From NCBI RefSeq assembly GCF_023509825.1, contig NZ_JAKQXY010000001.1, positions 186,001 to 250,000 on the forward strand: a stretch of 64,000 bases of DNA, written 5' to 3'. Of this stretch, positions 19,494 to 36,932 are shown in pieces. A program made the translations under genes and the position numbers. The notes beneath the pieces were generated by a model that worked only from the letters and a program-made list of their open reading frames with translations, was not told where the DNA came from and ran no database searches. The first letter of the stretch is position 1. The number at the start of each line of letters is the position of its first letter. This DNA comes from Spiroplasma attinicola (lineage in GTDB: Bacteria > Bacillota_I > Bacilli_A > Mycoplasmatales > VBWQ01).

Positions 19494-20045
19494 CTATTTT
19501 TTTGTTACTTTTTTAGTAGGACTGTTTACTTTTGCTTTTTTTACAGTTGATGGTTCTTTGTTAACTACTTTCTTTTCACCAGTAGTTGCTTTTTTAGTTG
19601 CAGCAACTTTTGTTGGTGCTTTCACTACTTTATTATTAGTTACTTTTTTAGTAGTTTCAGTTTGTTCTGATTTTGTTGTTTTACTTGTTGTCGCTTTAGT
19701 TGTTGTTTTGTTTTCTGTTGTTTTTGCTTTTGCAGTTGGTTTACCACTTAACAAAATATCAGTAATTTTTACCTTTGTATATGGCTGACGATGACCATAT
19801 TTAGTTTTTGAGTTTTTCTTTGGTTTATATTTAAAAACAACAATCTTTTTCGCTTTATCTTGCTTGATAATGATTCCATGAACTGAAGCACCCTTAATTA
19901 TTGGATTACCTACTGTTCCATCAATCATTAATACTTGATCAAAAACAATTTTATCTTCAGGATTACCTTGTAATTTTTCAATAAAATATTCTTGACCAAC
20001 TTCAACATTAATTTGTTTGCCACCGGTCTTAATTATTGCAAACAT
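19494..20045 (-). CDS. rplU: 50S ribosomal protein L21 with long C-terminal tail
   Basis: 183 residues; ordinary L21 is about 100. Residues 1-102 are L21 (MFAIIKTGGKQINVEVGQ, VVFKYKPKKNSKTKYGHRQPYTKVKI). From about residue 105 on there is a low-complexity tail made almost only of Lys, Thr, Ala, Val, Ser and Glu. The tail is in frame with no UGA and ends KKVTKK. It is probably disordered and positively charged, able to reach along rRNA or outside the ribosome; this is inference. The gene is led by an L21-type leader and a strong promoter. Confidence 0.95.
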   Translation of the reverse strand: MFAIIKTGGKQINVEVGQEYFIEKLQGNPEDKIVFDQVLMIDGTVGNPIIKGASVHGIIIKQDKAKKIVVFKYKPKKNSKTKYGHRQPYTKVKITDILLSGKPTAKAKTTENKTTTKATTSKTTKSEQTETTKKVTNNKVVKAPTKVAATKKATTGEKKVVNKEPSTVKKAKVNSPTKKVTKK

Positions 20046-20141
20046 TTTGCACCTCCAGCTTAGACTCGCCTTATAAGGTGGATAACCAAATTATTATCAC
20101 TTAAAACCTAAAAAAGTGCGGTTGCAACTGTTTTCACAGCA
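20046..20141 (-). promoter_or_regulatory. L21 leader (ribosomal protein autoregulatory 5' UTR)
   Basis: The untranslated region upstream of rplU holds the block GTTATCCACCTTATAAGGCG followed by AGTCTAAGCTGGAGGTGCAAA before the ATG. CCACCTTATAAGG(TGG-like) can pair locally and GGAGGTG is the ribosome site. This resembles from memory the Firmicute L21 leader family, which controls rplU-ysxB-rpmA by feedback. Not checked against a covariance model. Confidence 0.6.
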
Positions 20142-20147
20142 TTATTA

Positions 20148-20176
20148 ATTATAAAGATAATTGCTAGCAAAAGCAA
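20148..20176 (-). promoter_or_regulatory. Promoter of rplU operon
   Basis: On the - strand TTGCTT (-35), a 17-base spacer and a perfect TATAAT (-10). Predicted start about 20141, so the leader is roughly 95 nt. A second TTGCTT copy lies a few bases further upstream. Confidence 0.75.
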
Positions 20177-20260
20177 GAGAAAGCAAGAGTTATTTTTAGT
20201 AATTTAAATTGTTTAAAAAGTAATATTCAAGTTTAATTTTTAAAACAAAAATAATACACT

Positions 20261-21700
20261 TTATTTAAAAGAATTGCCAAAAATATTTGAATCATAAAAA
20301 TATAAAGTTTCCAATGCTTTATCAATATTTTTTATCATTTTTTCTTCATTTTCAGACAAACCAAAAAATGAATTCGAACTATAATCCCAACTATTTTTAT
20401 AAAAAGATTTTATTAAATTAATTAATTCAAATATTTTAGAATCAACTTGTTCTGATTTATCCACAAAAATACCAAAATAAATTCTTAACTTATAATTATC
20501 AGTTTCAATAATTTTCTTAAAAAAATAATGTAAGATTTGCAAATCACCTCTAGTATCTACTCCAAAAATAATAACATTCTTAACTTTTACAAGTTCTCCA
20601 AATAACTTTTCATAACTTTCCTTGCACTTATCAGTTTTTTCAAAATAAAAACCTTCCAAGCAAAGATTACCTTCTATCTTTATTTTGTCAAAATCTTCAC
20701 TTTCAAAATTATTAATGACATCCTTGTCATACAATTCATGAAATTTTCCATGTAAATGCTCTATACAAATTTCTTTTTTTCTTTCTGAAGAGTATTTTTC
20801 CATCATTAAATCATAATTTAATGTAAAAATTTTAGACGAATAATCTATAAAAGTATTAAATTTCTCATAATTTATTTGATAAGAACTATTTTTATCTTCA
20901 ATTAATAAACTTTTTAAAACAGAATTTTCATAATATATTTTTAAATCATTTAAAAATTTTAATGTTTGACAAATTTTGTCATAATATTTAAATCATATTT
21001 TCAAATCATATTCATCAATTAAATTAAAATTATTACATTTTTCTGAAATTTTATAACATTCAGAAAGTATATTTTCAAATACTTTATGAGTAAAAATTTC
21101 AATATTATCACCTTTTAAAAATCGAACTCAATCCATTTCTTTAGGATAACTATGAATTTGTTCTGGCTCGCATATTTCTTCTAATTGTTCTAAAAGACCA
21201 ATTAAACCTTTTATTCTTCTTAATCAATATTCAAAATTTTTATATTCTGGAGGAATTTCTTTAGTTTCTCCAAAATATGAATCCTCACCATTGTAATCTA
21301 AAAAATTTTTATTTTTTTCAGATTGCTGTCAATTTAAGTATATCTTGCCATTATCTACATAATTTGCTGAATTATTTTCATCTATATAAAGATTTATTCT
21401 TTCTGATATCTCTATAATATCAAATCACAAATTTTTACCATAATCTTTAATTGCTTCTAAAATACTATAAAATATAGTTTTTTTTAAATTATTTTCTAAA
21501 TCATCAAATTTATAATAACGTTCTATATCAAAAAAATAATTAATTCCATTACCTAATAAAATAAAATAGTTTTTCCTTTTTGAAATTATACTTTCCATTT
21601 GTTCTTGCGAAAAAATTTTTTCTCAATATTTATAGTTTTTATTATTTCCTGTTTTTAAATCATTGATGTCTAACTTATTATCTTTATTTTTAATAAACAT
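20261..21700 (-). CDS. SIR2-like/AbiH-type protein, candidate defence effector
   Basis: 479 residues with UGA as Trp. Three separated motifs match SIR2-like NAD-binding folds of the AbiH/DUF4917/SIR2_2 group: FILLGNGINYFFDIERYY (46-63, the nucleotide-binding GNG loop), FTLNYDLMM (292-300) and HLHGKF (315-320), followed by VIIFGVDTRGD at about 376-386. The middle (70-290) is helical and acidic. In known defence systems such proteins destroy NAD+ or abort infection; whether this one hydrolyses NAD is inference. It is the last gene of the - strand accessory cluster, 171 bases after the 447-residue protein. No strong Shine-Dalgarno is seen. Confidence is high that it is SIR2-like, low for exact family. 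Confidence 0.75.
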
Positions 21701-21871
21701 TATTTATAGTTTTAAACCTTTCTGATTTTCTTCATTATTTTATAATACTTAAACTCAAATTAAAGTAAAGTATGCTTTAATTTTATATTTGTAATAATAT
21801 ATATACTTATAGTAATAATTATATTTCATTTGTCTACTTAAAAAATATTCAGTCTAATATTTTAGAAAAAT

Positions 21872-23215
21872 TTAATTTATTTGTAATTTTAATCCTTTTT
21901 CTAATTCTTCTATTTCTTGCTTATAAGAACTAATGTTATTTTGAAATTTAATAAAAATATTCAAATAAATTTTTAAAGTTTCTTTTAAAATATTCAATTC
22001 ATTATTATTTAAATATCATCCATCATAATTTTCTCGATCATAATTATTTTTATGAACCGAATTATTAGTTAATAAATTAGCTGTTTTAAAAGAAATTAAT
22101 TCATCTTTATTTAAGACTTTATTTTCAATAAACTTAATTATTTTACTATTTTCAACTTGATATGGAGAAAATTTCTCTTCTGTTAAATTCTCAAAACTTT
22201 CTTCAAAAAAATATATTGATTGTTTATAATACTCTTTTCTTTCATTGATTAAAGATTGAACAATTTCATAATCATCTTTTATATCATTTATTTTTTTGAA
22301 CTGTTTATATCAATTAATTATTTTATTAAGCTTTTGTTCATTATTATTAATAATATTCTCAGTTTTTTTAATTTCATTCTCTTGATATTCATTATTTTTT
22401 TCATTTTCTTGCAGTTGTTTTAAATAATCTTTTCTTCATAAAAGTTCACGGTCAATTAGTATTTCTAAATTTAAATAAATAGGATGAAAAATTTCTTCAT
22501 TAATATAAGCAAAAATTAAATTTCTAATTGATCTAATATTATTTAAACAATTATAAAAGTCAGATTGTAAAATACAATATTTTATAATTTTTAAAGTTTG
22601 CTTAATTTCAAATGAAGTAGCATCATTTCCTTTTAAATACTTATTATTAATTTCATTAATATATGTTAATAATAAATTATTATTAAAATTAATATTCAAA
22701 ATACATTTCTTATTAAAAATAAGATTATCAATAGAATTCAATTCTTTAAACAAAAGACCATTAACTTTTGATATTTCCATTGAATTGTCATTATTAGAAC
22801 TAAATACAATAGATTCTTGATTTATTTCTCCATTAATCACATTAAATTTTATTTTTCCTTTATAAAAGAAATTTTGATTTTTAGTAAGAATTTTGGATAC
22901 AAAAATATGCCTATATTCTTGTCATCAAGAAAAATTATACAAAATTTGTTCTTCTCCATCATGAAGAAATCATCCTTCTCTTTCGTCATGATAAAAATCT
23001 AATTCAAAATTACTAATATTTCATAAATTAACTTCTTCATTATTATTAATTTGTTGTGAATTACGTAAATTAGATAAACTTTCTTTAATTGAAGAATTCA
23101 ATAAATTAAAACTAAATGTATAACATATAGAGTTAACATCATTTTCAAATCATTTATATTTAAGATTATTATTATGAATAAAAAGTAATCCTGGTAAAAC
23201 TTCTTTTAACTTCAT
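21872..23215 (-). CDS. Unrecognised 447-residue protein with coiled C-terminal half
   Basis: Starts MKLKEVLPGLLFIHNNNLKY and is open for 448 codons with several UGA-Trp codons. Residues 1-180 look like a beta-rich domain; 180-280 are helical; from about 285 (LKQLQENEKNNEYQENEIKK) to 330 heptad-like charged helices suggest a coiled coil; the end (SSYKQEIEELEKGLKLQIN) is another amphipathic helix. An NNSVHKNNYDR stretch near 380 faintly recalls HEPN-like RN..H motifs but lacks the arginine, so I make no claim. Located between the PHP-ATPase unit and the SIR2-like gene, all on the same strand, so it could be a sensor or scaffold for either (inference). Function unknown. Confidence 0.6.
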
Positions 23216-23387
23216 TTAACCTTACCTTCAATTAAAAATTATATAAAAATATAATAAACATTTTTTTCATTAATTAAAAGAGTATACAAATTTATCTTTA
23301 GACTTATAACATACAAAATAATTAATAATTAAACTGTCTTGAATTTAAATATTTTTTGTTAATATAAATTTTATTTACATCTTCTCA

Positions 23388-23687
23388 CTAACCTTTTTTA
23401 ATTTTATTTATATTATTAATTTCATTAATTATTTCTGTATAAAGATCTTTCAATTCATTAAAAGGTTTTAATACTTTATCAGGAAAGTTTTTTATATCAT
23501 CAGTACTATAATCTTCTTCTAATTTATATGTACTTTCCGTATTATATTCTAAACTTTCATAAATATCTTTAGCATTAATTATATTGTTTTTAGGAACTTT
23601 TAGTTTTGAAATATTATCACAAAATATTTCTATTATAAAATTATTATCTTCCTTTAACAAGGATAATTTAATTATTTTTTTTGTCAT
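23388..23687 (-). CDS. Small acidic protein overlapping the PHP-ATPase gene
   Basis: 99 residues, MTKKIIKLSLLKEDNNF to NNINKIKKG. Its ATG lies inside the last codons of the ATPase gene (20-base overlap) and is preceded, within that gene, by AAAGGAGA at a good distance (about 10 bases), so it is a real, translationally coupled partner rather than a shadow ORF. The sequence is acidic (KLEEDYSTDDIKNFPD) with a helical end. I do not recognise it. Coupling suggests a stoichiometric partner, inhibitor or specificity factor of the ATPase (inference). Confidence 0.65.
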   Translation of the reverse strand: MTKKIIKLSLLKEDNNFIIEIFCDNISKLKVPKNNIINAKDIYESLEYNTESTYKLEEDYSTDDIKNFPDKVLKPFNELKDLYTEIINEINNINKIKKG

Positions 23688-26013
23688 AAACTTTTATTCT
23701 CCTTTCAATTGCTTCATATCCTCCATCCATATCATCAGATATTAACTCTAGAATATTATATTCTAAACTTTCATACTCTAAGCATCCATTACTAATATTT
23801 AATTTCCCCTTTTCTCTTTTTAAATGTATAACATTATCCACATCTAAATTTACTACTAGCAAAGGATTATGAGTAACTATTATAATTTGTTTTTCATCTC
23901 TTAAAGTTTTTAAATATTCAATTAAATTAGAATAGATTTTTTTATTTGATATATTTTCTTCTGGTTGGTCTAATAATAAAAGTTCTCAAGTATCCTTTGA
24001 GTTTTGAACTATAAATTTATAATATGCAAGAGATAATTCACCTGGAGTACTTCCTATATTTTTATCAGAACTAGCAATTAAAATAGAATCTTCAGTTTTC
24101 TGCATTTTTTCAAGAAATTTTTGAAAATTTTCATTAACTTTTTCTTCATAGTTTAAAGCATTTGAATTTAAACCCTTGATAGCTTCTTTATATTTATCTT
24201 CAGTATTAAGCGTTCTAATTTTTTCTTCATTTCATCCTTTATTGAATAGAGTTTCATAAAAATCATCCTTAAAATCTTTATCATCATATTTAGTTCTTTT
24301 TATAAATTTATATCCTTGTTTATTTTCAATTTCACACCCTTTAATAGGATTTGGAAAAGTAGGAAAAACTGTACTATTTATTTTTAATTTTACTAAATCA
24401 ATTATATTGTTTTTAATTAAATTAAAGTTTTTAATATAATCTTGCTGTTTTTTATCATCACTTGTACTTTGTTTTTTTATTCTTTGATTATAATCATTAA
24501 TTTTGCTAAGTATTATATTTTTAATACTTATTTCTTTCTCTAAATCATTAGATTTTTTTTCAATGATTTTCAGCAAATTTTCTAAATCTATTATTACCTT
24601 TTTAAATGCATTATCTAATTTATTATTTTTATAATAATCATCGTTTTCTTTTAATTCTGATTCTAAACTTTCAAAAATATTTTTTAAATCTATTTTTCTA
24701 TTTTTATGAAAATTTTCAGTAGAATTTAAATAATTAATATTAAAAATAGTAATAAAAAACAATTTTGTCAATTCGTCTGTAAGCAATTCTAAATTATTAT
24801 TATGCATCTTTAATAATAAATTATTTATACTTATTTGATTTTTAATATAGAAAGTTAATTTATTAAAATAATTTGTACTTTCTGTTATAAACTTAGTATT
24901 ATTTACTTCTATAGCACCTACACCTAATGTAATTAAATCTTTAAGTAAAATTCCTTTATTTCTTAATTGAATAATGTAAGTTTGTGGAATATATTTATAT
25001 TTTATTTCTCTATTGAAATGACTTTTTATATTATATTTCTCTTTAAAAACTTTATAATAAGGAACCAATTTGTTATGTTCTCTAATTATACTTTCTAAAA
25101 TAGCTGTTTTACCTGAACCATTATCTCCTATAATTACATTAATTCCTTGTACTAAAGGCAAATGAATATTTCCTATTTCTATATTATTAATCACAGGATT
25201 TTTATAATCTCTTCTATTAAATCTTGTTTCTGGGGATGTAAAAACCATCATTAATCCTTTAAAAGTAGGAAGACATCGTATTTGGCTAAATTGTTTTTTT
25301 TCATGATTTTTATATTCTTCAGAATTTTTATCATGTCATGGATAAGCTTCTCAATCATGACAATCACTACTAATAATTTTAGCAAAAGCATCTATATTAA
25401 TTTCATTCAAACTATTAATCAAAATTCCTTCAATATTTGGTTTTTGAAATTCAAATGCACTTATATATCCACAATTAATATAATCTTTAGGATTACTACA
25501 ATGTGTATTTAAAGATCTACTACTATTTGAATTATCTAATGCATTTGTTTGACTAGAAATTAAAATAACATCAAGATTAATTTCTTTCAAAAGTTCTTCA
25601 AATTCTTTTTTTGAATAAACTTTTTGCTTTGAAAACTTATTTTTTACAACATGTGCTAAATGTGAAGAATCTATTTCGTCATTTTTAAAATTAAATAAAG
25701 CAATTATATGACCATATTTACTTTTTTCTTCTTCAAATTTAATATCAAATTCTATACCTGGAATAATATTTTTAATTTGTGAATAAACTTTAGACTTTAT
25801 TTTTTTCTTACATTCTAAAAAAATATTGTTATCAAATATATTATGATCTGTTATTGAAAATAAATTTATATTATTTTCTTCTAACTTTTGAAATAAAATG
25901 TCAAGATTATTTACTGTAGAATTTTTTACTACTTCTTCAACTTCCTTATGAGCACTTGCATATGAATGTATATGAAAATCTACAGTAATATTATTATTAA
26001 TTTTGCCACACAT
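23668..26013 (-). CDS. PHP-phosphoesterase/SMC-like AAA ATPase (TrlF-like)
   Basis: 781 residues in one frame. N-terminal PHP domain: DFHIHSYAS (H14, H16), SITDHN (D56, H57), PGIEFD (E88), YGHIIALF (H102) and SSDCHDW (D217, H219), i.e. all metal-site positions are kept. Then an SMC/ABC-type ATPase: Walker A GDNGSGKTA at 296-303, a long helical insertion (~320-600), signature-like TPGELS at 656-661, Walker B LLLLDQPEE with D682, and H-loop IVTHNP at 710-717. PHP fused to such an ATPase occurs in defence-associated proteins; from memory databases call a set of these TrlF. Predicted activity: ATP-gated nuclease or phosphoesterase (inference). AAAGG precedes the ATG. First gene of a unit with the 99-residue partner. 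Confidence 0.82.
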
Positions 26014-26084
26014 TATTTTTATTGCCTTTCCCCTTTTAATTTACTATTTACATAGTACCAAACAAATCATATATTTAAAACCCT

Positions 26085-26502
26085 TCAACCCTTCTTGTTC
26101 TTTTCACTAGCTACAAGCTTACAATATTGATACAGTGTCATTCTATCCTGAAACAACGAATAATGCGCCCTTATTGAGTTAATTATTTTACGGATTAGAG
26201 TATTAATTAAATAAATATTATTTTTATTCATCATTACAAAAATATTTTTGTAATTCATTTTTTCTATATAAAATATAATTTTTTCCTTTGTTAATTTGTA
26301 CTCTTTACTTAAACTCTCTTTAAAATTTTGATACTTTATTACTTTTTGCTCCATAATTTTTAGGATTAAAGTCTGGTTTTCTCTTATAAATCTGTTCCAT
26401 TAGTTGAGAAAATAAAACTTTACCATTTACTTTGTTTTCCTCAAATAAATTATTTAATATAACAAATATTTTTTTTAAATCCTCATTTTCAATATCATCT
26501 TT
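26085..26502 (-). pseudogene. Frameshifted OST-HTH/LOTUS-domain gene fragment
   Basis: The 5' part reads DDIENEDLKKIFVILNNLF, then VNGKVLFSQLMEQIYKRKPDFNPKNYG, the pattern of an OST-HTH/LOTUS domain (G.v.lS.l...l....P.F.p..YG). That frame stops at 26320, while the shifted frame from 26354 continues the domain as NFKESLSKEYKLTKEKIIFYI and runs 89 codons to 26085. Joined by one frameshift they give a complete LOTUS domain with an extra helical tail. Bacterial LOTUS domains are usually C-terminal to a NYN RNase domain; no NYN part is visible, so this is a decayed remnant. The 89-codon ORF alone could still be translated. Confidence 0.6.
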
Positions 26503-26660
26503 TTAAAGTTGAGTTACTGATATTAAATTTTGCGGAAGTAGAAATGGATGTATGATTTTCACTATATTGAATAATTAAATGCTTATTTTGATCTTTTGTC
26601 CATTGTTTAGCGATAAGAAAAGCACCTCTAATAATTATAAACACAAGAGTTTATTTTTGT
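26503..26660 (-). pseudogene. Possible remnant of an HTH-containing (transposase-like) ORF
   Basis: Reading the - strand gives a stop-free stretch FIIIRGAFLIAKQWTKDQNK, then SENHTSISTSAKFNISNSTL and KRWY, which looks like the helix-turn-helix of an insertion-sequence OrfA (..YNIS.STL.RW). It has no start codon and runs into the LOTUS remnant in a different frame. The evidence is a single helix-like segment; the identity is a guess. Confidence 0.25.
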
Positions 26661-26716
26661 GCCAACTTTATTATAGATGCTTATTTCAGTTCATTTTTAG
26701 TTACTTTTTCTCTAAT

Positions 26717-27190
26717 TTAGCGTTCATATTCATCAAATTTTCTTTTATTAATTTGTTCTTTTTTAATTGTTCTAGGTAAATCTTTGAAATTAACCACTGT
26801 TTTAAAAAATTTATTTTTACTATCTTTTTGTAAATTTTTAACATGATTTTGTAATTTTTCAAAATGTTCTTTATTTATTTTTCGAGATAATTTTATTTCA
26901 TCAAAATTATTGAAATCTTCGTTTCTTAAAACATATATTTGATTACATTTAATGTAAGCATCACAAGTATTACCATGTTTTTTTGAATATTCAAAATTTA
27001 CTATACCATTTAATCTTTGATTTTTTTGTTCTTTACTATGAAAGGCAGACATTGGCATTAACATCAAATGATCAGATTCAACTGAAAATATACACATAAA
27101 TCGATTATTTAAAGAAACACCATCATGACTTTCAAAAGGTTTACCAATATGGAGCACAGTGCCTACAAGTGATTTTTTAATCTTTTTCAT
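26717..27190 (-). CDS. Putative toxin of a Panacea-type toxin-antitoxin pair (copy 1)
   Basis: 157 residues. The core VGTVLHIGKPFESHDGVSLN, RFMCIFSVESDHLMLMPMSAF has the feel of a PemK/MazF-like small barrel (surface exposed ligand, conserved R, then a hydrophobic strand and LMPMS), followed by a basic helical C-terminus (HFEKLQNHVKNLQKDSK). The paralogue at 27942-28415 keeps NNRFMC.FS.E, L.LMPMS.FHS.E, F.YSK.HGNT.D.YIK and the helical segment. It starts 3 bases after the stop of a SocA/Panacea (DUF4065) gene, the classic antitoxin-toxin layout. The toxin role rests on the partner; the fold is a tentative reading. Confidence 0.6.
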   Translation of the reverse strand: MKKIKKSLVGTVLHIGKPFESHDGVSLNNRFMCIFSVESDHLMLMPMSAFHSKEQKNQRLNGIVNFEYSKKHGNTCDAYIKCNQIYVLRNEDFNNFDEIKLSRKINKEHFEKLQNHVKNLQKDSKNKFFKTVVNFKDLPRTIKKEQINKRKFDEYER

Positions 27191-27193
27191 AGT

Positions 27194-27700
27194 TTAAAAC
27201 CTAATATTACTTTCTAATGATGGGTCATTTAAATTATCTAAAAATGTTTCATTTTCTGAATAATATTTAATCATTTCTTGGTCTTTAATTTTTGAATTTA
27301 CTATAGTATTTTTTCAAATATCATCACAAGCAAGTTTAGCTAAATCAAAATCACTATATTCTTGATTTAAATCTAATATTAAAGATTCTAATTCTAATTT
27401 TTCAATATTTTTTAATTCAGTAATTTTAAAAAAATGATTTTCATCATCAATTATCTTAAAGTTATTTTTTGAATAATAATGATACATTTCTGGAATCACT
27501 GGTCCAATTGTTCATTTTTCAAAACTATTTGTTCATAATTTTTTGTCTCATGCTAGTAAAGCGTAAACATAAGTAAGATAAAGTAGATTTTGCAATCGTA
27601 AAGAAGAAATCTTTTTTTTATTTTCAAAATTACTTGTATTATACGAAAAGTTGACTACATATTCGCTAAATTTTTTGATATCAATATTTAAATTTTTCAT
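27194..27700 (-). CDS. Panacea/SocA (DUF4065) domain antitoxin (copy 1)
   Basis: 168 residues. SSLRLQNLLYLTYVYALLAW, KKLWTNSFEKWTIGPVIPEM and the later helical part match the Panacea domain (kLqkLlY...a.yl...g.plf...feaw..GPV.pe.y..y). Panacea domains act as broad antitoxins for unrelated toxins and are also found in SocA. AGAAGGGGG lies before the ATG. Followed by the putative toxin after 3 bases. Tail residues 110-168 (YSDFDLAKLACDDIWKNT) are less conserved. Confidence 0.8.
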
Positions 27701-27746
27701 ATTATTTTTGACCCCCTTCTGCAAATAATAAATTTTGAATAAATTA

Positions 27747-27752
27747 ATTATA
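27747..27752 (-). promoter_or_regulatory. Putative -10 box of TA operon 1
   Basis: TATAAT on the - strand, about 47 bases before the antitoxin ATG; the same TATAATTA motif occurs at the same place upstream of TA operon 2 (28992-28997). No convincing -35 box. Confidence 0.4.
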
Positions 27753-27785
27753 TAATCTTAAAATTAAATTATAAATAAAAATTAA

Positions 27786-27814
27786 AAGAAATATATTTAA
27801 TTAAATATATTCCT
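27786..27814. terminator. Possible terminator/palindrome after TA operon 2
   Basis: AGAAATATATTTAA is followed by its complement TTAAATATATTCCT with no loop, then T-rich sequence on the - strand. Very AT-rich, so only moderately convincing. Confidence 0.4.
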
Positions 27815-27825
27815 TTTAAATAATT

Positions 27826-27941
27826 TTAGCGCTCATAGTCATCAAATTCATTATTATCTTCATCTACTTCTTCTGCTACTTGCTGTGATTTTTTCAATGC
27901 TTTTTCATATTTTCTTATTTTTTGCATATTTTTTTGCATTA
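27826..27941 (-). pseudogene. Out-of-frame tail of toxin copy 2
   Basis: A 37-codon frame MQKNMQKIRKYEKALKKSQQ, ending NNEFDDYER, closely parallels the C-terminus of toxin copy 1 (KRKFDEYER). It is in a different frame from the toxin ORF that stops at 27942, so copy 2 has lost its original C-terminus by an indel near 27960-27975. Confidence 0.55.
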
Positions 27942-28415
27942 TTAATAATTTTTCTTTAGTAAGATACTATTAGAGCATTGTTCTTTTTCATTAAAAACAA
28001 ATAAATCTTCAAAAACAATTCTTTTCTTCAAAAATTTTATATGATTTTTTTGTAAATTTTTAACATGATTTTGTAATTTTTTAAAATGTTTTTCATTCAT
28101 TCTACGATATGCTTGTAATTCATTAAAATTATTAAATTCTTCTTTATTTAAATAATACAATTGATCATATTTAATATAACCATCACGAGTATTACCATGA
28201 ATTTTTAAATATTCAAAATTTGCTGATATTCTCAACTTTTGCTTTTTTGCTTCTTCACTATGGAAAGAAGACATTGGCATTAATATTAAATCATTATTTT
28301 CAATTGAAAATACACACATAAATCGATTATTTAATTTTTTACCATCATAACTTTTAAAAGATAAACCAATATGAATTATACTAGCATTAGCGATATAATT
28401 ATCTTTTTTTGCCAT
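27942..28415 (-). CDS. Putative toxin, copy 2, C-terminally truncated by frameshift
   Basis: 157 residues from the ATG that aligns with copy 1 (MAKKDNYIANASIIHIGLSF versus MKKIKKSLVGTVLHIGKPF). Core strands and the basic helix (HFKKLQNHVKNLQKNHIK) match copy 1. The last ten residues (CSNSILLKKNY) are unrelated, while the expected acidic DYER tail follows in another frame. An upstream in-frame ATG at 28433 would add six residues but lies deep inside the antitoxin gene. The ATG used here is within the last 17 bases of the antitoxin gene. Confidence 0.6.
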   Translation of the reverse strand: MAKKDNYIANASIIHIGLSFKSYDGKKLNNRFMCVFSIENNDLILMPMSSFHSEEAKKQKLRISANFEYLKIHGNTRDGYIKYDQLYYLNKEEFNNFNELQAYRRMNEKHFKKLQNHVKNLQKNHIKFLKKRIVFEDLFVFNEKEQCSNSILLKKNY

Positions 28416-28944
28416 ATTTAAAAAACTTAACATTATTTTCTAATGCTTGGTTATACATTATTTTATCAAGAAAAGTATCATCATTTTTTGAATAATATTT
28501 TGCAATATCTTCAGCTTTCATGATTGAACTTATATTTGTATTTTTTCAAATATTATCACAAACTAATTTTGCTAATTCAATATCAGTATATTTTTCAATT
28601 AAATCTATTATTAATAATTCTAAATTTAATCTTTCAAGATTTGTTATTTCAGAAAATTTGACAAATTTTTTTATTCTATCATATAACTGAACTCCATTTT
28701 TTGAGTAATCATGATAAATTTCTGGTATTATTGGTCCAATTGTTCATTTCTCAAAATTATTAATTCATAATTTTTTATCTCATGCTGCTAAAGCTCAAGC
28801 ATAAGCACAATAAAGTAGATTTTGTAATTTTAAAGGTGAAACTTTTTGTTCTTCAGTATTATTAATATCAAAAGTACTAACATCATAAATAAGATTAACT
28901 ATATATTCGCTAAATTTTTTGATATCAATATTTAAATTTTCCAT
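28399..28944 (-). CDS. Panacea/SocA (DUF4065) domain antitoxin (copy 2)
   Basis: 181 residues, clear paralogue of 27194-27700: same start (NLNIDIKKFSEYIVNL), KLQNLLYCAYAWALAAWDKK, EKWTIGPIIPEIYHDYSK. Its C-terminus is longer and overlaps the toxin start by 17 bases, whereas copy 1 has a 3-base gap. AAAGGGG precedes the ATG. The pair is divergent from the MBL gene at 29110, so 28945-29109 holds two promoters back to back. Confidence 0.8.
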
Positions 28945-33826: not shown

Positions 33827-34432
33827 CTAAACATAATCAACAATAAATCTAACAATATTAACTTGAGAACTTGTTCAACAACTATGAAAAGCCCCTGCTG
33901 TTCGAGCATAAATATAAGAACTTACTGATAATAATGTTGTTGCTTCTTTTTCATCATATTTAGCAGTAACAGTTAAAGTTATTGTTGCTGTATGATGACC
34001 TGTACCTTTTCAGTTATCGTTTGTTTCTGTTACTTCTCAAACTTTTTCTAGTTTACTAGACTTTGCTTCATTAATATTAGCAGTAATAGTAGATAAAGTT
34101 TTAGGATTTGTATAAGTATGTAAATCAAAAGTACCAGTAATAACTAATAACTTAGAATTAGCAAAAAAATCATTTCAAGATTTTGATGATGCTTTATTAG
34201 CATAAGCAGTATTATCTACTGTATTTGTTCCTGTTGCTTTAGTTTCAACACGATGATTAATATTAACATCTGCTCAGTCATAAATTGCTTCAGAACTATG
34301 AATAGGATTATCAATATTTGTATTTACTAACTTTGTTGATACATTTGTTTGATGATTAATATCTAATACTCCGACAGCTGCTGAACTAGATAGAACACCT
34401 GCAAGGCCTAATGTTGCTCATATTTTTTTCAT
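33827..34432 (-). CDS. Secreted protein, three-member paralogue family (member 1)
   Basis: 201 residues. N-terminal signal peptide MKKIWATLGLAGVLSSSAAV with small residues at the cut region and no lipobox Cys, so it is secreted or anchored by the uncleaved helix. The mature part is Thr/Asn/Ser-rich and beta-like; ITLTVTAKYDEKEATTLLSV and SSYIYARTAGAFHSCW end it. Related to 34642-35244 (very close) and 36333-36932 (more distant). Function unknown; surface exposure likely. It has its own promoter and SD hairpin. Confidence 0.75.
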
Positions 34433-34434
34433 AA

Positions 34435-34480
34435 TTGCCTCCCCTTTGCAATTGCTTTTTTACTAATTAAATTATATCTC
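34435..34480 (-). promoter_or_regulatory. Conserved promoter and SD-hairpin upstream of secreted protein 1
   Basis: TATAAT at 34471-34476 and TTGCAAAGGGGAGGCAA at 34435-34451, where TTGC and GCAA pair and leave AAAGGGGAG, the ribosome site, in the loop. Same arrangement before members 2 and 3. Confidence 0.6.
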
Positions 34481-34502
34481 TATTTTTGAATTTATTAAAA
34501 TA

Positions 34503-34535
34503 AAAAATAAGTTCTTTTTAAGAACTCATTTAAAA
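34503..34535 (-). terminator. Extra terminator between secreted proteins 1 and 2
   Basis: GAGTTCTTAAAAAGAACTT followed by ATTTTTT on the - strand. The arm ATGAGTTCTT recurs at 37864-37893. It is the second terminator after member 2, with no gene between them. Confidence 0.65.
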
Positions 34536-34577
34536 CTTTACATAGAACATATTCTTAATAATTAGATTATACAAAAT

Positions 34578-34622
34578 AAAAATGGTGACTGATAATAAAT
34601 GATTAACACAGTCACCTTTTAT
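34578..34622 (-). terminator. Terminator after secreted protein 2
   Basis: AAAAGGTGACTG and CAGTCACCATTTTT pair around a loop of about 19 bases, with a T-run on the - strand. Confidence 0.75.
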
Positions 34623-34641
34623 TAAAAACTAATTCATTAAA

Positions 34642-35244
34642 TTAATCAGCAATAAATTGAATATCATTAATTTGAGAACTGGTGAAAGAATCATGACCAA
34701 CACCATCTGTTCTAGCATAAATATAAGAACTAACTGTTAAAGAAGTCACACCTTCTTTTTCATCATACTTAGCAGTAACAGTTAAAGTTATTAATGTCAC
34801 AGTATGATGGTCAGAATTTTCTCATTGATCATTTTTTTCTGTAACTTCTCAAACTTTTTCAAATTCTCCAGATTTTGCCTCATTAAGCTGAGCATTAATA
34901 ACTGACAAAGATTCAGGATTTGTATAAGTATGTAAATCAAAAGTACCAGTAATAACTAATAACTTAGAATTAGCAAAAAAATCATTTCAAGAATCTTTTG
35001 TTGTCTTATTAGCATAATTAGTTCATTGTACAATATCTATTCCTTCTGATTTAGTTTCAACACGATGATTAATATTAACATCTGCTCAGTCATAAATTGC
35101 TTCAGAACTATGAATAGGATTGTCAATATTTGTATTTACTAACTTTGTTGATACATTTGTGTGATGATTAATATCTAATACTCCGACAGCTGCTGAACTA
35201 GATAGAACACCTGCAAGCCCTAATGTCGCTCATATTTTTTTCAT
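34642..35244 (-). CDS. Secreted protein family member 2
   Basis: 200 residues, the closest paralogue of member 1: signal peptide and residues 20-70 (INHHTNVSTKLVNTNIDNPI, AIYDWADVNINHRVE) are nearly the same, as is LLVITGTFDLHTYTNP. The C-terminal third is more diverged (VTSLTVSSYIYARTDGVGHD). Duplicate of member 1, with its own promoter, terminator and SD hairpin. Function unknown. Confidence 0.75.
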
Positions 35245-35246
35245 AT

Positions 35247-35289
35247 TTGCATCCCCTTTGCAATTATTTTTTTTATTAACTAAATTATA
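35247..35289 (-). promoter_or_regulatory. Conserved promoter and SD-hairpin upstream of secreted protein 2
   Basis: TATAAT at 35284-35289; TTGCAAAGGGGATGCAA at 35247-35263 with the ribosome site in the loop of the TTGC/GCAA stem. Confidence 0.6.
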
Positions 35290-35312
35290 CATCTATTTTT
35301 AAAATGATGAAA

Positions 35313-36218
35313 TTAATCATCAAAATTTATTTCATCTTGATAATACTTTAAAAAATGCTTTTCTAAACTAAAAGGTATCAATTTAAAATTATTAACATTA
35401 AATTGTGAAATTGCTTTCAAAAAATCATTAATATCTTCATCTTTAATCTTAACTTCAATTTGATTAAGTACATCATCTTTCTTAAGAATATTCCATTTCT
35501 TTTTAAGAAAAGATTGATAATCAAGAATATTAGCAAATTTAACTTGATAAACTTTATTAAAATCTTTTTTCATTTCTTCAATAAGAATTTCTGAAATAAT
35601 TTTACCTTTTTTAATTATTGCTACGCGATTACAAACATTTTCTATTTCACTAAAAATATGAGAACTGATAAAAATAGTAGTTCCTTCTTTTTCAAAAGTT
35701 TTAACTAATTTATTAAATTTTTCTTGCATTAATGGATCTAAACCTGATGTTGGTTCATCCATAATCAAAACTTTTGGTTTATGCATAAAAGCTGCAATTA
35801 AAGCAACTTTTTGTTTCATTCCTTTCGACATTTTTTTAATTTTTCTTGTTGCATCTAAATCAAAATAATCAATTAATTTTTTAGTATAACTTCAATCAAC
35901 ATTTTTTCTAATATTAGCAAGAACTTTTAAATAACTAATTCCTGTCATATACTCAGGAATTGCCACTTCACCAGCAACATACCCTAAATCTTTCATAATT
36001 TTGGCTGAATCTTTTCAAATATCTAATCCAAAAATCTTCCCTTGTCCATTATCAGGTTGAATAAATCCCATCATTTGTCGAATAACTGTTGTTTTTCCAG
36101 CTCCATTAGGACCAATAAAACCATAAACTTCACCAGCTTTAACTGCTAAATTAATTTCAAAACAACCAATATTTTCACCATATTTTTTAGTTATTGCTTC
36201 TAATTCAATTAGATTCAT
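35313..36218 (-). CDS. ABC transporter ATP-binding protein (ABC-2 exporter type)
   Basis: 301 residues. Walker A GFIGPNGAGKTTVIRQMMG, Q-loop region, signature MSKGMKQKVALI, Walker B VLIMDEPTSGLDP, and H-loop FISSHIFSEIE; a 90-residue C-terminal extension follows as in bacitracin/lantibiotic exporter ATPases (BcrA type). AGGAGG-like site (GGAGGTTTAG) precedes the ATG. Its membrane partner is at 36997-37791, but a secreted-protein gene with its own promoter lies between them. Confidence 0.92.
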
Positions 36219-36254
36219 CTAAACCTCCATTTAATTGATTTAACTATACTAAAA

Positions 36255-36313
36255 ATTAAATAGTGACTAATAATGAAGACCATCTTCAACATAATAGCCA
36301 CTAATTTTTATAT
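36255..36313 (-). terminator. Terminator after secreted protein 3
   Basis: GTGGCTATTATGTTGAAGA and TCTTCATTATTAGTCAC pair (small bulges) across a 3-base loop, then TATTTAATTTTT on the - strand. Confidence 0.65.
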
Positions 36314-36332
36314 TAAAAACTAATTTACTAAA

Positions 36333-36932
36333 TTAATCAACAATAAATCTAATAGTATCAACTTCTGAAGTTGTTCAACAAGCATGAACTGAACCAGCGG
36401 TTCTAGCATAAATATAAGAACTAACTGATAACAATGTTGTTGCTTCTTTTTCATCATACTTAGCAGTAACAGTTAAAGTTATTGTTGATGTTTGATGTCC
36501 TCAACCACGTCATTGATCATTTGTTTCTGAATAACTTCAAACTCGTTCTAAATCATTAGATCTTGTTTCACTTATATTAACAACAATATTATTAAATTCT
36601 TTAGGATTTTTATTAGTATGCAAAGTAAAAGCACCAGAAATAAGTAAAAATTTAGAATTAATAAAATAATCATTTCAAGATTTTGTTGTTGCTTTGTAAG
36701 CAAAACTAGTATTTTCTAATTTATGTGTTCCTGTTGCCTTAGTTTGAACTTTATCATTAATATTAATATCTGTCCATCCATAAATTGCTTCAGATGTATT
36801 AATGGAATTATCTAAATTTTGATCTGTCAAAGTTGTTACTATATTTGTTTGATTATTAATATTTAATACTCCAGCAGCAGTTGAAGTAGTCAAAGCTCCA
36901 ACAAATCCTAGTGTTACCAATATTTTTTTCAT
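36333..36932 (-). CDS. Secreted protein family member 3
   Basis: 199 residues. Signal peptide MKKILVTLGFVGALTTSTAA, then the family core (LNINNQTNIVTTLTDQNLDN, AIYGWTDININDKVQTKATG). Members 1 and 3 share the C-terminal TVTAKYDEKEATTLLSVSSY stretch and RTAG, so part of member 1 may have been copied from or converted with member 3. It lies between the permease and ATPase genes of an ABC exporter, separated from the ATPase by its own terminator. One Trp is TGG rather than TGA. Confidence 0.75.

What the first reader, a model, noticed from the sequence alone, without database searches (positions are those of the whole stretch)
23668..23687. PHP-ATPase overlaps a 99-residue ORF by 20 bases with its own SD
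The small ORF start is inside the ATPase coding end and is preceded by AAAGGAGA within that gene. Such tight coupling is a hallmark of paired subunits or toxin/immunity-like partners.
Basis: seen in the sequence. Interest (0 to 1): 0.55.

Follow-up and report, generated by a model that had tools for sequence, protein, structure and literature searches.

The report
Small partner gene of PHP-ATPase
A tiny gene that starts inside the end of a large nuclease-like ATPase gene is real: in every case examined, one branch of these probable anti-virus proteins is followed by such a gene, so the two products most likely work as one machine.

Summary
Read with genetic code 4 (TGA=W), a 781-aa PHP-ABC ATPase (26013..23668, minus strand) overlaps a 99-aa ORF (23687..23388) by 20 nt, with AAAGGAGA upstream of the ATG inside the ATPase gene. 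The small ORF is not a chance ORF. All 17 loci of this ATPase branch that I examined (16 intact, one with an in-frame stop) carry a 93-122 aa ORF at the same place and in the same relative frame. Of 16 distinct small proteins, 15 are supported as homologous by leave-one-out profiles (two weakly); one (L071) is positional only. Seventeen relatives outside the branch, picked from hit lists, lack such an ORF. A tree separates paired from solo ATPases by one branch (98/97). In 392 phylum genomes the small-protein profile hits the 11 that carry the ATPase plus one unrelated ORF. Several pairs sit in or beside BREX, R-M, GmrSD or AbiH genes. Best reading: a two-subunit variant of the PHP-ATPase anti-phage nucleases (Ppl/TrlF-like), with a small acidic protein as co-translated obligate subunit. 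Its regulatory role is inferred; toxin/immunity is not shown. It matched no family convincingly in the Pfam, NCBIfam, PADLOC and PHROGs scans run.

The parts
23668..26013 (-). PHP-domain + ABC (SMC/OLD-like) ATPase, 781 aa, table 4 (4 TGA read as Trp): HxH 14/16, TDH 56-57, GIE 88, DCH 217-219; Walker A K302, C-loop G658, DQPE 682-685, H-loop H715
   Evidence: motif names and metal-ligand roles recalled
23388..23687 (-). conserved small partner protein, 99 aa, acidic (pI 5.2), predicted b-b-b-a-b-(a)-long helix
23668..23687 (-). 20-nt overlap; partner ATG lies across the TAT codon of the invariant C-terminal Tyr776 of the ATPase
23698..23705 (-). Shine-Dalgarno-like AAAGGAGA inside the ATPase gene (codons of residues 770-772, E-R-R), 10 nt before the partner ATG

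Best explanation
The two ORFs encode a two-subunit, probably anti-phage, nuclease: a PHP phosphoesterase/exonuclease fused to an SMC/OLD-like ABC ATPase, plus a small acidic protein that is its obligate partner. The partner's start codon and SD are embedded in the last codons of the ATPase, so its translation is probably coupled to the ATPase and it can bind the nascent or finished ATPase at fixed stoichiometry. By analogy with Ppl, NTP bound by the ATPase (DQP, with Gln where ABC ATPases usually have the catalytic Glu, so a slow switch rather than a motor) keeps the PHP nuclease off until phage-made DNA ends or nucleotide depletion release it; the partner is proposed to set or relieve that inhibition, or to recognise the trigger. 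Shown: conservation, position, frame, homology, clade restriction and co-occurrence. Inferred: physical complex, nuclease activity, defence role, direction of regulation.
For: 17 of 17 loci examined of this branch carry the ORF, 0 of 17 solo relatives do. Leave-one-out profiles: each of 15 small proteins ranks second of 1848 ORFs, behind only one true member left in the background; window E=3.5e-6, weakest L026 0.059 and L045 0.025. Independent find: G584's copy at E=1.8e-10 with a profile not containing it. Co-occurrence: ATPase in 11 of 392 genomes; small-protein profile in the same 11, which are in the profile by construction, plus one unrelated ORF. Tree: paired/solo split on one branch, 98/97. 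Neighbours: BrxL, PglZ and an Eco57I-type methylase upstream (L044); methylase and ResIII, type III-like (L045); EcoRI-type methylase + GmrSD/HNH (L029); AbiH (L028); Eco57I or D12 methylases (L056, L058, L048); AAA_21 ATPase (L070). ATPase relatives in family libraries are TrlF, Spaf_1101, Ppl, GajA, PtuA and AriA. Ppl is described as a PHP 3'-5' ssDNA exonuclease held off by bound NTPs and needing 3'-OH ends (PMC12904381, passages). Small proteins are acidic in 15 of 15 (pI 4.1-5.2).
Against: No experiment shows interaction or defence. The window's ATPase has Ser where 10 of the 16 intact members have His in the AHQ motif, and 5 of 16 have Gln in place of His in the GHII motif, so PHP catalysis is not certain in every member. 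L071's small ORF is not recognised by the profile, and L056's is not recognised by the A4 profile in its own record. Between L056 and L058 the small gene has 8 silent and 8 replacing codon changes, against 31 and 6 in the last 200 ATPase codons: weak constraint. The fold model of the partner is of middling confidence (pLDDT 70.6, from 2 sequences; the other four models 42-55). Some pairs lie, by eye, among housekeeping genes (L026, L030, L047). The neighbours scanned for families were chosen by eye.
Confidence: 0.66

Rival explanations
1. Toxin-antitoxin-like pair: the PHP-ATPase is harmful when active and the small acidic protein is its neutraliser (immunity), lost or displaced on infection.
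For: Tight overlap, acidic small protein in 15 of 15, no orphan small protein recognised in 392 genomes.
Against: 17 solo relatives exist without such a gene; no convincing antitoxin family match; no data on toxicity.
Confidence: 0.2
2. The small protein is a specificity or sensor subunit (like LmuC/middle component of Lamassu/ABC-3C) needed to activate the ATPase on a phage structure, not to inhibit it.
For: Fast divergence (13-36% identity to the window copy) while the ATPase C-terminus is better kept (31-51%); a small protein, LmuC, accompanies the SMC-like ATPase in Lamassu (PMC10586767, passages).
Against: No sequence match to ABC-3C middle-component families in Pfam; the effector is fused to the ATPase here.
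Confidence: 0.3
3. The overlap is mainly an expression device: the small protein is an unrelated or weakly selected passenger.
For: Low identity among small proteins; 8 silent against 8 replacing codons between L056 and L058.
Against: Homology, fixed frame and position over deeply diverged ATPases and one-branch restriction.
Confidence: 0.05
4. The fixed relative frame reflects a programmed +1 frameshift that makes an ATPase-partner fusion in addition to the free partner.
For: Overlap is 2 mod 3 in 17 of 17 loci; an A8 run lies in the window overlap.
Against: No common slippery motif seen by eye in the overlaps shown; an ATG is available at each site; common descent explains the frame.
Confidence: 0.04

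Closest known systems
Ppl (E. coli single-gene anti-phage protein, NF042955 / PDLC02208)
   Same: PHP domain plus NTPase in one polypeptide (PMC12904381, passages); weak profile match, 33.5 bits over residues 432-773
   Different: 882-position model, cut-off 1000 bits not approached; described as a single-gene system in the passages read
TrlF family (NF045780; trlR-trlF-trlG operon of Photorhabdus)
   Same: PHP + ABC ATPase, best family match, E 2.5e-42
   Different: 146 bits against cut-off 350; the TrlF-type genes examined have no overlapping small ORF. The 79-aa TrlR of Photorhabdus is the first gene of its operon and a putative regulator, not a downstream overlapping partner (PMC7554251, passages)
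Spaf_1101 family (NF045781)
   Same: Nearly whole-length weak match, 52.9 bits, residues 39-778
   Different: cut-off 475; the one plasmid example examined (L052) is solo
Lamassu / ABC-3C (LmuB + small LmuC + effector)
   Same: SMC-like ATPase with Glu-to-Gln change at Walker B and a small partner gene (PMC10586767, passages)
   Different: Effector is a separate protein there, PHP is fused here; no match of the small protein to a middle-component family in Pfam
Gabija GajA, Septu PtuA, PARIS AriA
   Same: Related ATPase profiles in PADLOC: best 40.7, 32.3 and 24.4 bits
   Different: Partners there are helicase, HNH or TOPRIM proteins (partly recalled; PARIS and Gabija), not a ~100-aa acidic protein

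Membership tests
TrlF family (NF045780) | score at or above the curated cut-off (350 bits) | tested here: not met
   145.6 bits
TrlF family (NF045780) | PHP domain and ABC ATPase motifs | tested here: met
Ppl (NF042955) | score at or above the curated cut-off (1000 bits) | tested here: not met
   33.5 bits
Ppl (NF042955) | single-gene system | tested here: not met
   a conserved second gene overlaps the ATPase; that it is functionally required is not tested
Ppl (NF042955) | ssDNA 3'-5' exonuclease released by NTP depletion | not testable with these tools
   needs biochemistry
Spaf_1101 (NF045781) | score at or above the curated cut-off (475 bits) | tested here: not met
   52.9 bits
Lamassu / ABC-3C | small middle component of a known MC family | tested here: not met
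   no such Pfam family at E up to 1 for 13 members; only sequence profiles were tested
Lamassu / ABC-3C | separate effector protein | tested here: inconclusive
   PHP domain is fused to the ATPase; the 447- and 479-aa genes downstream in the window have no match in 12 of 12 other paired genomes
Toxin-antitoxin pair | ATPase toxic alone and neutralised by the small protein | not testable with these tools
   needs expression assay
PHP-ABC ATPase with overlapping small partner (the group defined here) | homologous ~100-aa ORF at the 3' end of the ATPase, same relative frame | tested here: met

The most novel reading that the evidence does not exclude
The pair is a mobile 'guard' module that plugs on to restriction and BREX operons: a PHP-ABC ATPase nuclease is held by a small acidic, possibly DNA-mimic-like subunit, and is released when a phage disables or overwhelms the resident modification system, as PARIS is said to do on sensing Ocr (passage), but with a fused PHP nuclease and a new partner family.
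Probability: 0.12. Interest if true: 0.8.

Novelty: new variant of a known kind. Interest (0 to 1): 0.5.

Why it matters
Ppl, the relative with a published mechanism, is described as a single-gene system. A whole branch of PHP-ABC ATPases that carries a second, unrecognised subunit in each case examined changes what must be cloned to test it and gives a natural handle on how these nucleases are kept off. The partner matched no family convincingly in the Pfam, NCBIfam, PADLOC and PHROGs scans run, so automatic annotation may leave it nameless.

Tried and rejected
Chance ORF: rejected by the 17 of 17 / 0 of 17 contrast. The 17 solo loci were picked by me from hit lists that are far longer (55, 254 and 923 plasmid records and 1 and 7 phage records), so they are a sample, not a census.

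The downstream 447-aa and 479-aa genes as further subunits: no match in the 12 other paired genomes. Upstream 111-aa ORF (26354..26019): single copy in the own genome, no family at a cut-off; no evidence that it belongs.

Orphan small protein in G350 (E 7.5e-5): it is the N-terminus of a 643-aa ORF that I read from memory as threonyl-tRNA synthetase (TGS domain), without a PHP-ATPase in the 12-kb stretch fetched; treated as a chance or fold-level match. Two further weak hits elsewhere in paired genomes (G441 E 0.043, G179 E 0.175) were not followed.

L071's ORF: kept as positional only; the profile does not find it. L056's small ORF is not found by the A4 profile in its own record but is in the leave-one-out test (E 0.0012).

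Family scans of the small proteins gave only isolated weak hits: Pfam best 0.0076, one member per family; PADLOC best 0.0015, one member each, to Cas12a, AbiEii and Cas6 models; PHROGs best 0.028; NCBIfam 0.091, far under its cut-off.

Fold of the small protein: Foldseek against PDB gave nothing better than E 0.42; VIA-align 2 gave at best Z 5.1 over 73 residues to a ribosomal chain, with other ribosomal and reverse-transcriptase chains below. Too weak to name a fold. ATPase model: pLDDT 34.5, not used.

Scans of genome contigs with single proteins found no relative, nor did one viral scan. No solved-structure sequence relative of the ATPase or of the small protein (best E 1.8).

SD selection by codon choice: a first count took the first Arg after the DGG motif, not the invariant one; the corrected count is AGG in 5 of 16 paired and 2 of 15 solo genes, so no evidence. 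No terminator-like site in 20000-27300; promoter-like sites no more than in shuffles.

Literature: searches showed no paper in their listings on a small partner of a PHP-ABC ATPase; several listings were cut (20 of 38; 20 of 385; 12 of 1,027). Two defence surveys (BREX; Dnd) hold no 'PHP' in the main text, nor does a Streptococcus survey. Krishnan et al. 2020 (ABC-3C) is not held, so prior description there cannot be excluded.

Full report
What is there. The genome appears to use TGA as a sense codon: with table 4, but not with table 11, the pieces 25351..26013, 24232..25251 and 23668..23862 join into one 781-aa ORF, 26013..23668 on the minus strand. A 99-aa ORF, 23687..23388, starts 20 nt before that ORF ends. 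AAAGGAGA lies at 23705-23698, with 10 nt between it and the ATG.

The large protein. It is a PHP domain followed by an SMC/OLD-like ABC ATPase. Best family matches are TrlF (145.6 bits, cut-off 350), Spaf_1101 (52.9, cut-off 475) and Ppl (33.5, cut-off 1000), with weaker matches to GajA, PtuA and AriA. None of these curated cut-offs is reached. The PHP core residues (HxH, DH, E, D of DxH) are present in 16 of 16 intact members of the branch; the last His of DxH in 15 of 16; two further His positions are variable, and the window lacks one of them (the assignment of metal ligands is from memory of PHP structures). All 33 ATPases aligned have DQP at Walker B, that is Gln where ABC ATPases usually carry the catalytic Glu (recalled); the same kind of change is noted for Lamassu LmuB (PMC10586767, passages). 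Some loci were picked with a script that required DQP, so the 33 of 33 is partly by selection.

The small ORF is conserved. Homologous ATPases were sought in 296 class genomes, 392 phylum genomes, 160 genomes of the order of G288 and viral contigs. I examined 17 loci of the window's branch: window, L026-L031, L046-L049, L070, L071 and the viral L044, L045, L056, L058 (L057 is a near copy of L056 and was not counted). Each has an ORF of 93-122 aa that starts between 50 nt before the end of the ATPase and 1 nt after it (overlaps, in that order: 20; 14, 29, 17, 29, 17, 20; 20, 8, 50, 11; 17; 8 or 29; 23, -1, 20, 20). Start sites were chosen by me where several in-frame starts exist. The overlap is 2 mod 3 in all 17. 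In eight members shown (window, L027-L031, L046, L047) the ATG sits across the TAT codon of the invariant C-terminal Tyr, just after the conserved Arg. L044's ATPase has an in-frame TAG, so that copy may be broken or misassembled.

Controls. Seventeen relatives outside the branch (L032, L033, L050-L054, L059, L072-L076, L078-L081), picked by me from longer hit lists, were scanned by the same rule: none has an ORF of 60-160 aa there; L059 and L072 have longer, different genes. L077 (PHP and ATPase as separate genes) and L034 (fragment) were left out of both sets. A maximum-likelihood tree of the 33 full ATPases puts the 16 intact paired ones on one side of a single branch (98/97; 0 of 500 label shuffles as low); several end branches are long, the tool warns that some long branches meet, and the root is a midpoint.

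Homology of the small proteins. With the left-out member removed from the model, each of 15 proteins ranked second among 1848 ORFs, behind only L058, a true family member left in the background; E-values run from 6e-15 to 0.059 (window 3.5e-6). L070's copy was found independently in G584 at 1.8e-10. L071's ORF was not found. A scan of 392 phylum genomes gave 12 with a hit at E up to 0.001: the 11 that carry the ATPase (these copies are in the model, so that part is by construction) and G350, an unrelated housekeeping ORF. So no orphan small protein was recognised. Pfam, NCBIfam, PADLOC and PHROGs give no convincing name (NCBIfam was run on the window copy only, PHROGs on five members, Pfam and PADLOC on 13). 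All 15 are acidic, pI 4.1-5.2. Constraint looks loose: between L056 and L058 8 silent and 8 replacing codons differ, against 31 and 6 in the last 200 ATPase codons. AlphaFold2 from two sequences gives strands 2-13, 16-23, 26-32, helix 39-45, strand 52-57 and a long helix 70-98, mean pLDDT 70.6; fold searches are inconclusive.

Neighbourhood. The window pair lies in a block (20261-28944) between the L21 leader/rplU operon (genes named by eye) and a gene read by eye as a metallo-hydrolase, with a weak SIR2_2-like gene and two Panacea-type genes. Elsewhere I scanned 20 neighbours, chosen by eye, from 11 loci: BrxL, PglZ and an Eco57I-type methylase upstream, the ATPase starting 8 nt after brxL (L044), a methylase and a ResIII protein (L045), EcoRI-type methylase and GmrSD/HNH (L029), AbiH (L028), Eco57I-type methylases (L056), D12 methylases (L058, L048), AAA_21 (L070, L048) and AAA_13 (L027) ATPases; L031 and L046 gave only DUFs, and 3 of the 20 gave nothing. 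L026, L030, L047, L049 and L071 were not scanned and by eye lie among housekeeping, conjugative or capsule genes. The pair thus often, not always, travels with defence genes.

Mechanism. The relative with a described mechanism is Ppl, a PHP 3'-5' ssDNA exonuclease kept off by NTPs bound at its PHP and NTPase domains and needing 3'-OH ends (PMC12904381, passages only). The paired branch keeps the same modules and adds a subunit probably made by coupled translation. I think it most likely that this acidic protein binds the ATPase and gates it. Whether it inhibits (immunity-like) or senses (LmuC-like) is open. The complex, the nuclease activity and the defence role are inferences.

Novelty. The parts are of a known kind; the conserved overlapping partner and its confinement to one branch were not seen in the literature listings searched (several listings cut), and the ABC-ATPase survey most likely to mention it could not be read. 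I file it as a new variant of a known kind.

Noticed in passing
26717-27724 and 27942-28944 (-): Two tandem, by eye related two-gene cassettes: a Panacea/SocA-like gene (176 and 181 aa, Pfam E 3e-7 and 2e-6) followed by a 157/163-aa gene, one of them with a very weak PemK match, E 0.15. Looks like a duplicated Panacea toxin-antitoxin pair with an unnamed toxin.
   Followed up: no
20261-23215 (-): 479-aa gene with a weak SIR2_2 match (E 0.0062) and, by eye, an AbiH/SIR2-like motif near its start, plus a 447-aa gene of no family; no match in 12 other genomes with the PHP-ATPase pair. Possibly a separate two-gene defence system.
   Followed up: partly
26019-26644 (-): 111-aa ORF ending 5 nt upstream of the ATPase, and by eye a transposase-like HTH fragment at 26450-26644; the 111-aa ORF is single copy in the own genome.
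   Followed up: partly
L044:130-10668: PHP-ATPase pair sits 8 nt downstream of brxL in a BREX-type locus (Eco57I-type methylase, PglZ, BrxL) on a contig classed as viral; the ATPase has an in-frame TAG.
   Followed up: partly
L056/L057/L058:3895-6631: Viral contigs with neighbours that look phage-like by eye carry the pair beside DNA methylases: a possible phage-borne inter-phage defence cassette.
   Followed up: partly
L077:1343-3959: A small Vibrio record of class Tectiliviricetes carries a PHP-like gene (annotated as similar to DNA polymerase III alpha) and an ATPase gene as two separate genes: the fused parts may occur split.
   Followed up: no
33827-36932 (-): Three related proteins of about 200 aa with near-identical N-termini (signal-peptide-like by eye) repeat along this stretch.
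   Followed up: no
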